From Sandaracinus amylolyticus (GTDB lineage: Bacteria > Myxococcota_A > Polyangia > Polyangiales > Sandaracinaceae), in the NCBI RefSeq assembly GCF_021631985.1, contig NZ_CP070225.1, forward strand, positions 8,122,001 to 8,186,000: a stretch of DNA of 64,000 bases. The letters are read 5' to 3'. This document shows positions 13,622 through 18,730 of the stretch, piece by piece (the stretch's first letter is position 1; each line of letters starts with the position of its first letter). Position numbers and translations under genes: made by a program. The notes beneath the pieces were generated by a model that saw nothing but the letters and a program-made list of their open reading frames with translations, was not told where the DNA came from and searched no databases.

Positions 13622-15271
<1,650 letters not shown>

Positions 15272-15316
15272 CGACCTCTCCTGCTCGCGAGCCGGTGCGG
15301 CGTTCTGCTTCACACG

Positions 15317-15362: not shown

Positions 15363-15555
15363 GTTGCGCTAGGTTTTTCGCCACAATTTTCTCAGCTTGT
15401 TGAGTCGTCGAGCCCGGAAAACGCACGGCCCACGGCATCGACCTGCGCCCCGTGCCGCGTCCCGCAAGCGGTGAAGTTGTAAACGACTTGTTGATCGCGT
15501 TTGATGCGGGGCGACGGGCCTTGTGGAGCGTGGCCGCGCGCGCCAGGTTCGCGGC

Positions 15556-16281
15556 ATGACGGGGGCGAGCGGGTTCGTGGTGGGCGCGACCGGGCTGACG
15601 GGACGCCACGTAGTCACGCGATTGGTGGCACGAGGGCACGGAGCGATCGCGCACGTGCGTCCCGACTCCCCATCGCTCGAGACGTGGCGCACGCGCTACG
15701 CGGAGCTCGGCGCGAGCGTCGACGCCACGCCCTGGGACGAGGCCGCGATGCGCACGACGCTGATCGCACGAAAGCCGACGTGGGTGTTCGGGTGCCTCGG
15801 CACCACGCGCGCGAGGGCACGCGAGGCAGCGCGCGCCGGCCGCGACGCGAGCAAGGAGAGCTACGACGCAGTCGACGTCGCGCTCACCGAGATGACGATC
15901 CGCGCCGCGAAGGACGCGGGGGTGCAGCGCTTCGTGTACCTGTCGTCGATCGGCGCGGGGGACGGCGCGCAGAACGCGTACCTCGCGGCGCGCACGAAGG
16001 TGGAGAAGACGCTGCGGGAGAGCGGCCTGCCGTACACGATCGTGCGGCCCTCGTTCATCGTCGGGGATCGCGACGCGCCGCGCGCGGGCGAGAACGTGTT
16101 CGGCGCGATCGCCGACGCGGGGCTGGGCCTCGTGGGCGCGCTCGGCGGCGCGAAGGTGCGCGATCGGTATCGCTCGATCACCGGCGAGCAGCTCGCGCAG
16201 GCGATGGTCGCGATCGCCGAGGACCCGAGCTGGCGCGATCGAGTCGCGGACGGCGTCGACCTGCAGCGCCTCGTGAGGTGA
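15556..16281 (+). CDS. Atypical SDR / NAD(P)H-binding protein
   Basis: A 241-residue Rossmann protein of the NmrA/atypical SDR type. The nucleotide-binding motif is VVGATGLTGRHVV near the N-terminus; FVYLSSIGAG and the YTIVRPSFIVGDR block are typical of this group. A YxxxK-type pair occurs as AYLAARTKVEK. Such proteins act as reductases, epimerases or redox sensors; nothing here decides which. ATG 15556 is preferred to a TTG at 15523. Its stop codon directly abuts that of the convergent regulator gene (TGA|TCA), leaving no intergenic base. Confidence 0.8.
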   Translation: MTGASGFVVGATGLTGRHVVTRLVARGHGAIAHVRPDSPSLETWRTRYAELGASVDATPWDEAAMRTTLIARKPTWVFGCLGTTRARAREAARAGRDASKESYDAVDVALTEMTIRAAKDAGVQRFVYLSSIGAGDGAQNAYLAARTKVEKTLRESGLPYTIVRPSFIVGDRDAPRAGENVFGAIADAGLGLVGALGGAKVRDRYRSITGEQLAQAMVAIAEDPSWRDRVADGVDLQRLVR

Positions 16282-17586
16282 TCACTCGTCGCCGTCGGCA
16301 TCGCCGCGGGTGGGCGTCACCTTGCGCTTGGAGAAGCGCTTGATCTCGACCTTGCCTGCGGGCGCGCCCTTCGGCTTCGAGACGTCCGACACCCGGCACA
16401 CGTGCACCTCGACGCGCGGCGCGCCGCGCGCCTTCGAGTACCAGGCCGCGAGCTGAGCCGCGCGCTCGACGACCGCGTCGGGCGGATCGCCCCGCTCGGG
16501 GCTGCGCACGACGACGTGACTGCCCGGCGTTCCTCCGCCGACGTGCAGCCAGAGATCGCGCTTCTTCGCGACGTGGAACGTGAGGTGATCGTTGTCCTCG
16601 TCGGCGCGCCCGACGAGCACCTCGATGCCGTCGATCACGAAGGTTCGGTACGGCTTGCCGCGGCTGCCCATGATCGGCGCGAGCATGACGCGCGGCGACG
16701 CGCGGAGCATCGCATCGATTCCGTCGAGCAGGCGCGCGAGGCCGAGCTCGAAGACCGAGTCGAGCTCGACGTCGAGGCGCGGCGCCGCGATCAGGCGGGC
16801 GAGCGTCGGGTACGAGCCGCCCTCGAGCGCTGCGTCGAACGAGGGCTCGCGCTGCGCGATCCACTCGTCGTTCGTCAGGCCGCTCGTCGCCTCGGCCTCG
16901 AGCTCGGCGTCCACGCCGATCGCGACGCCGCGCACGAAGCTCATGAGCACGAGGTACGTGCGCATCATCTCTCCGGGATCGAGCCCGAGCCCGTCGATCG
17001 CGCGCAGCACCGACTCCGCGAAGCGCATGCCGTTCGGGAGCATCTGGGGCCGGGTGATCGAGAGCGCGCGCACGAGCCACGGATGCGCGCGATGGAGCTT
17101 CCACTGCGCGCGCAGCGCGAGCTCGAGATCGGCGCGCCACGCGCCGGACGGTGCGCGCTCGGGGAGCTCGGCGAACGCGGTGTCGATCATCGCGAGCAAG
17201 AGCTCGTCCTTGCTGGGCACGTGGCGGTAGAGCGACATCGCGGGCGCGCCGAGCGCACCGGCGACGCTGCGCATCGAGACCGCATCGAGGCCCTCGACGT
17301 CGGCGATCCGGATCGCCACGCGCACGATGCTCTCGAGCGCGAGCTCGGTATCGACGCGCGATGCCCGAGGTCGTGATCGACCGGCGACGATGGTCCCGAC
17401 GCGCGGCTCGGCGCGGACGAGCCCCTCGTGCTCGAGCGTCGCGATCGCGCGGGTCGCGGTCGCGAGCGCGACGTCCCACCGGCGCGCGAGCTCGCGCATC
17501 GAGGGCAGGCGCTCCCCGGGACGCAGGGCGCCCGAGGTGATCTTCTTGCGGAGGTCGGCCGCGATGCGGGCGTAGGGCGGAGTCAC
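16282..17586 (-). CDS. GntR-TetR transcription factor fused to an NFACT-R (DUF814) RNA-binding domain
   Basis: A 434-residue protein with three parts in one open frame. Residues about 1-67 are a GntR winged helix (YARIAADLRKKITSGALRPGERLPS, shown in part: LPSMRELARRWDV). Residues about 80-285 are a TetR unit: helix-turn-helix AVSMRSVAGALGAPAMSLYRHV and an all-helical ligand domain. Residues 306-434, beginning at an internal Met (codon at 16671), match the NFACT-R domain of RqcH/NEMF: NDHLTFHVAKKRDLWLHV, PGSHVVVRS, AAQLAAWYSKARG and VSKPKGAPAGKV. A stand-alone NFACT-R gene would normally start at that Met. GTG start at 17586; a palindrome overlaps its upstream edge. Confidence 0.85.
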   Translation of the reverse strand: MTPPYARIAADLRKKITSGALRPGERLPSMRELARRWDVALATATRAIATLEHEGLVRAEPRVGTIVAGRSRPRASRVDTELALESIVRVAIRIADVEGLDAVSMRSVAGALGAPAMSLYRHVPSKDELLLAMIDTAFAELPERAPSGAWRADLELALRAQWKLHRAHPWLVRALSITRPQMLPNGMRFAESVLRAIDGLGLDPGEMMRTYLVLMSFVRGVAIGVDAELEAEATSGLTNDEWIAQREPSFDAALEGGSYPTLARLIAAPRLDVELDSVFELGLARLLDGIDAMLRASPRVMLAPIMGSRGKPYRTFVIDGIEVLVGRADEDNDHLTFHVAKKRDLWLHVGGGTPGSHVVVRSPERGDPPDAVVERAAQLAAWYSKARGAPRVEVHVCRVSDVSKPKGAPAGKVEIKRFSKRKVTPTRGDADGDE

Positions 17587-17587
17587 T

Positions 17588-17601
17588 CTGTCCTAGTACA
17601 G
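17588..17601. promoter_or_regulatory. Palindrome at the start of the GntR-TetR gene
   Basis: CTGTCCTAGTACAG, with CTGT/ACAG arms, begins 2 nt from the regulator's GTG start. A second inverted repeat ATCAC-N9-GTGAT (17666-17684) lies between it and the divergent hydrolase start. Both are candidate autoregulatory operators; this is positional inference. Confidence 0.35.
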
Positions 17602-17722: not shown

Positions 17723-18730
17723 ATGCGTACGTCGTACGAGCTTTCCATCCGCGATCTGTTCACCCGTCGCGCCCCGGTGCGGATCGACGCGCCCGACGGG
17801 ATCGACTTCGCGGGATTCGTGTCGCTGGGAGGGATCGAGCAGTGGATCTCGGTGCGCGGCGACGACGTGCGCAATCCGGTGCTGGTCATCGTGCACGGCG
17901 GGCCGGGCGCGGTGACGTCGATCTTCACGCCGCGGCTGCGGGCGTGGGAGCAGCGCTTCACCGTGGTGCAGTGGGATCAGCGCGGCGCGGGCAAGACGTT
18001 CGGGCGTCACGGCGCGCAGGGCGAGCTCTCGCTCGCGCGGCTCGCCGAGGACGGCATCGACCTCGCGCTCCACCTGCGGGCGCGGCTCGGGCACGAGAAG
18101 GTGATCGTGCTCGGCAGCTCGGCGGGGAGCGCGATCGCGCTGCAGATGGTGCGGCGGCGGCCCGAGCTCTTCCTCGCGTACGTGGGCGTCGATCAGAACG
18201 TCGGTGACCCCGACGGGCTCGGGCAGCGGCTCGCGATCGACGCGCTGCGAGCGAGCGGGAACGTGCGCGGGGTGCGCGAGCTCGAGCGCATCGGCGCCGA
18301 TCCTTCGCGGTGGAGCCGGGACGACTTCGATCGTCGCAACCGCATCGTCGCGGGCGCGCGCACCGGGGGGCCCGACATGATCACCCAGGTGACGCTGCCC
18401 GCGATGTTGTCGTCGCCGCAGCACGGCTGGGGCGATCTGCTCGACGTCACGCGCGGCCTGCGGTTCTCGCTCGATCGGCTGCACGCGGAGGTCGCGACGT
18501 TCGACGCGCGCGCGGGTGGGACGCGCTTCGAGCTGCCGGTGATCGTGCTGCAGGGAGCGCACGACATCGTGACCCCGCACGCCCTCGCGGAGCGCTTCGT
18601 CGCGGAGATCGACGCGCCGTACAAGGCGTTCGCGACGATCGAGGGCGCGGGGCACCTCGCCGCGTTCGCGTTCCCCGAGCGCTTCCTCGATCAGCTCACT
18701 CGCGCGTGGCGCGGATCAGACGCTCGGTGA
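17723..18730 (+). CDS. Alpha/beta hydrolase, proline iminopeptidase-like
   Basis: A 335-residue alpha/beta hydrolase. The oxyanion motif HGGPG is near residue 58, a WDQRGAGKT block follows, the nucleophile elbow is GSSAGS near residue 133, an acidic residue is in QGAHDIVTP and the catalytic His in GAGHLAAF near residue 310. HGGPG plus WDQRGAGKS-like blocks are typical of proline iminopeptidases and related peptidase S33 enzymes. It is divergent from the GntR-TetR-NFACT-R regulator, a likely controller. Its last 35 bp overlap the 3' end of the convergent methyltransferase gene. Confidence 0.85.
   Translation: MRTSYELSIRDLFTRRAPVRIDAPDGIDFAGFVSLGGIEQWISVRGDDVRNPVLVIVHGGPGAVTSIFTPRLRAWEQRFTVVQWDQRGAGKTFGRHGAQGELSLARLAEDGIDLALHLRARLGHEKVIVLGSSAGSAIALQMVRRRPELFLAYVGVDQNVGDPDGLGQRLAIDALRASGNVRGVRELERIGADPSRWSRDDFDRRNRIVAGARTGGPDMITQVTLPAMLSSPQHGWGDLLDVTRGLRFSLDRLHAEVATFDARAGGTRFELPVIVLQGAHDIVTPHALAERFVAEIDAPYKAFATIEGAGHLAAFAFPERFLDQLTRAWRGSDAR

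What the first reader, a model, noticed from the sequence alone, without database searches (positions are those of the whole stretch)
16282..17586. Transcription factor fused to a ribosome-quality-control RNA-binding domain
Seen directly: one open frame encodes a GntR helix-turn-helix, a TetR unit and, from an internal Met at residue 306, an NFACT-R (DUF814) domain with NDHLTFHVAKKRDLWLHV, PGSHVVVRS and AAQLAAWYSKARG. Known: NFACT-R belongs to RqcH/NEMF, which bind tRNA/ribosome at stalled nascent chains, and also occurs as short stand-alone proteins. Inference: a regulator that could couple a small-molecule or RNA/ribosome signal to DNA binding, perhaps of the divergent peptidase-like hydrolase gene. 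I know of no described regulator of this layout.
Basis: partly seen in the sequence, partly recalled or inferred. Interest (0 to 1): 0.75.

Follow-up and report, generated by a model that had tools for sequence, protein, structure and literature searches.

The report
Two-switch regulator fused to NFACT-R domain
A soil myxobacterium and its closest sequenced relative each carry one gene in which a complete DNA-binding regulator has been joined end to end with a complete small protein of the ribosome-rescue family; the join is real and kept by selection, but it is confined to this genus and nothing yet shows that the two halves work together.

Summary
One 434-codon frame (16282-17586, minus strand) encodes GntR, TetR_N, TetR_C_1 and NFACT-R_1 domains, all above Pfam cut-offs. 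The same fusion, 91% identical and with no gap in the linker, occurs in the second finished genome of the genus. Purifying selection acts on both halves (dN/dS 0.12-0.37 for the regulator, 0.02 for NFACT-R), so it is not a sequencing or chance artefact.

Elsewhere the two halves are separate, complete genes. GntR-TetR regulators of about 300 residues are a known actinobacterial and myxobacterial type, usually divergent from an FAD monooxygenase. The NFACT-R half is a 120-130 residue single-domain protein in 55 genomes of the order, starting exactly where Met306 lies here. The fusion is therefore one lineage-restricted, end-to-end joining of two genes.

The best reading is a ligand-responsive repressor, probably of the divergent alpha/beta-hydrolase gene, with an independently folding NFACT-R domain keeping its old, unknown nucleic-acid role. 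Coupling to ribosome stalling is not supported: NFACT-N, which reads tRNA in RqcH, is absent. Internal translation from Met306 lacks any Shine-Dalgarno or -10 signal, but is not excluded. This is a new domain combination made of known parts.

The parts
16282..17586 (-). fusion gene, 434 aa, GTG start, TGA stop
   Evidence: open frame; conserved at 91% aa in G001; dN/dS 0.24 over all codons
17386..17577 (-). GntR winged helix-turn-helix (residues 4-67)
   Evidence: Pfam PF00392 E 2.4e-16; dN/dS 0.36
17188..17328 (-). TetR_N helix-turn-helix (residues 87-133)
   Evidence: Pfam PF00440 E 6.3e-8; dN/dS 0.12
16708..17154 (-). TetR_C_1 ligand/dimer domain (residues 145-293)
   Evidence: Pfam PF02909 E 2.1e-22; nearest solved relatives SimReg2 2y2z and ActR 2opt; most unfused homologues end near residue 298
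16666..16701 (-). linker, residues 296-307, with in-frame Met301 and Met306
   Evidence: pLDDT under 50 in the model; no indel between the two species
16285..16671 (-). complete former stand-alone NFACT-R protein, residues 306-434 (Pfam domain 318-416)
   Evidence: Pfam PF05670 E 3.2e-10; aligns end to end with 120-130 aa stand-alone proteins; pLDDT 93-98 over about 311-420; dN/dS 0.017 for 307-417
17588..17601 (.). imperfect palindrome CTGTcCTAGtACAG just upstream of the start, candidate operator (weak)
   Evidence: read from the sequence; only the half CTGTACTAGG is kept in G001
17723..18730 (+). divergent alpha/beta hydrolase, presumed target
   Evidence: Pfam Abhydrolase_1 E 5e-17; kept divergent in G001 at 84% aa
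15523..16281 (+). convergent NmrA/NAD(P)-binding protein, abutting tail to tail; probably unrelated
   Evidence: Pfam NAD_binding_10 E 1.6e-19; kept in G001 at 93%

Best explanation
SHOWN: the gene is a genuine, selectively maintained end-to-end fusion of two complete proteins, a GntR-TetR dual-HTH regulator (residues 1 to about 298) and a myxobacterial stand-alone NFACT-R protein (306-434), made once in the ancestor of two species of this genus. INFERRED: a small hydrophobic ligand binds the TetR_C domain, whose nearest solved relatives are SimReg2 and ActR, and releases the dimer from an operator in the 136-bp gap, derepressing the divergent alpha/beta hydrolase and the gene itself. INFERRED: the NFACT-R domain is tethered by a short flexible linker, folds on its own and keeps its ancestral nucleic-acid or ribosome-binding job; the fusion merely makes it co-expressed with, and dimerised by, the regulator. 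Its ancestral job is not known.
For: Domains. Fusion conserved in G001 with synteny. Selection: dN/dS 0.36, 0.12, 0.37 and 0.017 for GntR, TetR_N, TetR_C and NFACT-R, each with dS>dN at P<0.01. Unfused GntR-TetR homologues, 40-50% identical, stop near residue 298 in Actinomycetota and Polyangiaceae and mostly face an FAD_binding_3 monooxygenase, so regulation of the divergent gene is the likely rule for this class. Stand-alone NFACT-R in 55 of 184 genomes of the order, starting at M[AS]S[KR]G[KR]PYRT or close to it, which is Met306. Both genes present but unlinked in G458, G482 and G474. Fused NFACT-R nests inside the stand-alone clade, apart from RqcH. G000 has no other stand-alone NFACT-R, so the fused copy must carry that function; its dN/dS (0.04) is no higher than that of free copies (0.08-0.17). 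NFACT-R is confidently folded, linker of low confidence.
Against: No expression, binding or ligand data. The hydrolase replaces the usual monooxygenase partner, so target and ligand are guesses by analogy. The candidate operator palindrome is only half kept in G001. The regulator half of the model is unreliable (pLDDT about 50) because no homologues could be supplied for it.
Confidence: 0.6

Rival explanations
1. Coupling sensor: NFACT-R binds tRNA, rRNA or a stalled 50S subunit and this changes DNA binding by the GntR-TetR half, linking ribosome quality control to transcription.
For: NFACT-R of RqcH lies on the 50S near the A-site finger (PMC8012679); the fused copy is extremely conserved; one polypeptide holds both activities.
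Against: NFACT-N and HhH, which contact tRNA in RqcH (PMC8373112, PMC8012679), are absent; the same NFACT-R protein is free-standing and unlinked in 55 related genomes; no recurrent neighbour ties stand-alone NFACT-R to regulation.
Confidence: 0.12
2. Two products from one gene: the long frame is a regulator with a C-terminal tail, while an internal start (Met293, 301 or 306) still makes the free NFACT-R protein.
For: Met306 is exactly the start of the stand-alone relatives and both Met301 and Met306 are kept in G001; NFACT-R is far more constrained than the regulator (P 0.0006).
Against: No Shine-Dalgarno pairing at 301 or 306 in either species (+1.2 kcal/mol; Met293 about -3.5, ordinary background) and no CAGACT-like box 6-8 bases upstream as many free copies have; only dS 0.25 separates the species, so keeping ATG is weak evidence.
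Confidence: 0.18
3. NFACT-R serves as an extra DNA-binding or dimerising module of the regulator, as in human CCDC25, a stand-alone NFACT-R protein solved as a homodimer and with double-stranded DNA.
For: The predicted domain matches CCDC25 (7eoe, 7eof, 8woh) with Z about 16 at 1.9-2.4 A and by sequence profile, E 3e-11.
Against: Only 19-21% identity, and RqcH/FBPS structures are closer (Z about 21, 37% identity); a shared fold does not show shared DNA binding.
Confidence: 0.08
4. Artefact: a base error or missing stop joins two adjacent genes.
For: Stops are rare at this GC (1.8% per codon), so one error could join two frames.
Against: Same fusion, frame and linker length in an independent finished genome, with 126 nucleotide changes across the gene that leave the frame intact.
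Confidence: 0.02

Closest known systems
GntR-TetR_C_1 hybrid regulators (annotated 'TetR/AcrR family transcriptional regulator C-terminal domain-containing protein') of Actinomycetota and Polyangiaceae
   Same: Same order of GntR, TetR_N and TetR_C_1, 40-50% identity over residues 3-298, same divergent placement
   Different: They end at about 300 residues and mostly face an FAD_binding_3 monooxygenase; here there is a C-terminal NFACT-R and an alpha/beta hydrolase partner
Stand-alone NFACT-R (DUF814) proteins of Polyangiales
   Same: 58-73% identical over the whole 120-130 residues, same start motif
   Different: They are separate genes at unrelated places with no N-terminal regulator
RqcH / NEMF / Rqc2
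   Same: NFACT-R fold, Z about 21, up to about 50% identity to myxobacterial RqcH
   Different: No NFACT-N, HhH or coiled coil; a separate RqcH-like gene exists in this genome
Human CCDC25
   Same: NFACT-R fold used outside ribosome rescue, solved with DNA
   Different: About 20% identical; no transcription-factor domains

Membership tests
GntR-TetR_C_1 hybrid regulators | GntR wHTH, TetR_N HTH and TetR_C_1 in that order | tested here: met
   compared
GntR-TetR_C_1 hybrid regulators | Protein ends just after TetR_C_1 (about 300 aa) | tested here: not met
   134 further residues here and in G001
GntR-TetR_C_1 hybrid regulators | Divergent gene is an FAD_binding_3 monooxygenase (common, not strictly defining) | tested here: not met
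   Abhydrolase here, FAD_binding_3 in most relatives; L170 also has a hydrolase nearby
GntR-TetR_C_1 hybrid regulators | Binds an operator and is released by a ligand | not testable with these tools
   palindrome at 17588-17601 is only half conserved
Stand-alone NFACT-R family | NFACT-R domain with conserved core and start motif like M[AS]S[KR]G[KR]PYRT | tested here: met
   (MGSRGKPYRT at residue 306)
Stand-alone NFACT-R family | Single-domain 120-130 aa gene | tested here: not met
   fused in frame to the regulator
RqcH / NEMF | NFACT-N, HhH and coiled coil before NFACT-R | tested here: not met
   no PF05833 match in the 434 aa
RqcH / NEMF | NFACT-R domain | tested here: met
CCDC25-like DNA sensors | NFACT-R that binds double-stranded DNA | not testable with these tools
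   fold match only

The most novel reading that the evidence does not exclude
The NFACT-R domain acts within the regulator, by binding RNA, the 50S subunit or DNA, and changes operator occupancy, giving a one-protein link between translation state (or nucleic-acid binding) and transcription of a hydrolase gene.
Probability: 0.15. Interest if true: 0.7.

Novelty: new variant of a known kind. Interest (0 to 1): 0.4.

Why it matters
It is a natural, selectively maintained fusion of a transcription factor with the nucleic-acid-binding domain of the ribosome-rescue family, in an organism where that domain has no other free copy. It shows that the stand-alone NFACT-R protein, widespread in myxobacteria and of unknown role, tolerates being tied to a dimeric DNA-binding protein, which limits what its job can be and offers a handle for finding it. 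If the halves do communicate it would be a new way to wire translation to transcription, but the evidence for that is thin.

Tried and rejected
Search for other fusions: in 379 Myxococcota genomes and 184 genomes of the order only G000 and G001 are fused. Ten stand-alone copies, most with long open frames upstream, were checked: in none does the upstream frame show the codon-position GC pattern of a coding frame, so those frames are chance. A conserved neighbour of stand-alone NFACT-R that might tell its function: none convincing. Shared neighbours between this locus and stand-alone NFACT-R loci: none outside G001. Viral contigs for the regulator half: none. Plasmid NFACT-R hits were RqcH/FbpA-like or unannotated. 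One phylum search was run in the wrong reading frame by mistake and is not used; it was repeated. Structure prediction was informative only for NFACT-R, since homologues of the regulator half could not be supplied; the VIA rows for residues 72-144 are helical noise. Literature searches found no described HTH-NFACT-R regulator; the library is open-access only, and the main NFACT survey (Burroughs and Aravind 2014, known to me from citations) was not found in it.

Full report
WHAT IS THERE. The minus-strand frame 16282-17586 is open for 434 codons. Pfam finds, in order, GntR (4-67), TetR_N (87-133), TetR_C_1 (145-293) and NFACT-R_1 (318-416), all above curated cut-offs. The divergent neighbour (17723-18730 +) is an alpha/beta hydrolase, and an NmrA-like gene (15523-16281 +) abuts the 3' end tail to tail. 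The window lies in a 10.96-Mb genome of 2 contigs. The second finished genome of the genus, G001 (10,327,335 bases), is probably Sandaracinus amylolyticus DSM 53668, reported at 10.33 Mb (PMC5010890, abstract; this identification is inference).

IS IT REAL. At 71% GC an open frame proves little: a random codon is a stop with probability 0.018, and 20 codons stay open with probability about 0.70. Three facts make the fusion real. First, G001 has the same fusion at 91% identity over residues 6-434, no indel after residue 76, and a syntenic locus. Second, selection: dN/dS is 0.36 (GntR), 0.12 (TetR_N), 0.37 (TetR_C) and 0.017 (NFACT-R), with dS above dN at P<0.01 in each. Third, codon-position GC is of coding type on both sides of the junction, whereas stand-alone NFACT-R genes that happen to have long upstream open frames show no such pattern upstream.

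WHERE THE HALVES COME FROM. The regulator half is a known type. tblastn against plasmids gives 40-50% identity over about residues 3-298 in Nonomuraea, Kitasatospora, Streptomyces, Tsukamurella and Corynebacterium, annotated as 'TetR/AcrR family transcriptional regulator C-terminal domain-containing' or 'GntR' proteins. Pfam confirms GntR and TetR_C_1, and in two of the three tested also TetR_N. Seven genomes of the order have the same regulator unfused. Most of these proteins stop near residue 298. The NFACT-R half is a 120-130 residue stand-alone protein in 55 of 184 genomes of the order, beginning at the residue equal to Met306. In a 48-row tree the two fused domains are sisters, nested in the stand-alone clade and away from RqcH. 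Both genes exist separately and unlinked in G458, G482 and G474. So the fusion joined two whole proteins with a linker of roughly ten residues, once, in this genus. The genome holds one other NFACT-R gene, an RqcH-like protein with NFACT_N; the fused copy is the only member of the stand-alone family.

HOW IT PROBABLY WORKS. Most unfused GntR-TetR regulators examined are divergent from an FAD_binding_3 monooxygenase (L167, L169 and L172 judged by eye only). The nearest solved relatives of the TetR part are SimReg2, PamR2 and ActR, which by established knowledge are regulators from antibiotic gene clusters, ActR binding actinorhodin-type aromatic polyketides. By analogy the protein here is a dimeric repressor that controls the divergent hydrolase and itself and is released by a small, probably hydrophobic ligand; this is inference. 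An imperfect palindrome at 17588-17601 is only half kept in G001, so the operator is not identified. NFACT-R is predicted with pLDDT 93-98 and the linker under 50; the closest folds are RqcH and FBPS (Z about 21), then CCDC25 (Z about 16), a stand-alone NFACT-R protein solved as a homodimer and with DNA. In RqcH, tRNA recognition belongs to NFACT-N and HhH, and NFACT-R is a poorly resolved domain near the A-site finger (PMC8012679, PMC8373112). The simplest reading is a passenger that keeps its own job. Its constraint matches or exceeds that of free copies: 0.04 against 0.08-0.17.

INTERNAL START. Met306 is the ancestral start, and Met301 and Met306 are kept in both species. Neither has Shine-Dalgarno pairing (+1.2 kcal/mol in both), and Met293 is at background level. 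Several stand-alone relatives have a CAGACT or GAGACT box 6-8 bases before the start, suggesting leaderless transcripts; the fusion has no such box. This favours a single fused product without proving it.

VERDICT. Observation confirmed; interpretation partly supported. It is a new domain combination built from two known families, limited so far to two species.

Noticed in passing
L166, L168, L171, L137 (also L138, L140-L142; by eye L167, L169, L172): Unfused GntR-TetR_C_1 regulators are repeatedly divergent from FAD_binding_3 monooxygenases in both Actinomycetota and Polyangiaceae, which suggests a widely shared module for sensing and oxidising an aromatic compound.
   Followed up: partly
L145, L146, L148, L153, L154, L045 upstream of the NFACT-R start: Stand-alone NFACT-R genes of Polyangiales often carry CAGACT or GAGACT 6-8 bases before an ATG/GTG start with no clear Shine-Dalgarno, as if transcribed leaderless.
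   Followed up: partly
G000:C1:4328052-4328333 (L003): The genome's RqcH-like protein is short (466 aa from the GTG) and its NFACT_N match is best only in the later part of the profile (297-453), so its N-terminal tRNA-reading part may be divergent.
   Followed up: no
window 13622-15313 (-): ORF of 563 aa that looks like a malate synthase (judged by eye), kept at 96% in G001 next to the fusion locus.
   Followed up: no
window 17588-17601: Imperfect palindrome CTGTcCTAGtACAG one base upstream of the fusion's start codon; half of it is conserved in G001.
   Followed up: partly
NFACT-R domain, window 16339-16635; PDB 7eoe, 7eof, 8woh: Human CCDC25, a DNA sensor, has the same NFACT-R fold as the fused domain, so DNA binding should be tested for bacterial stand-alone NFACT-R proteins.
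   Followed up: partly
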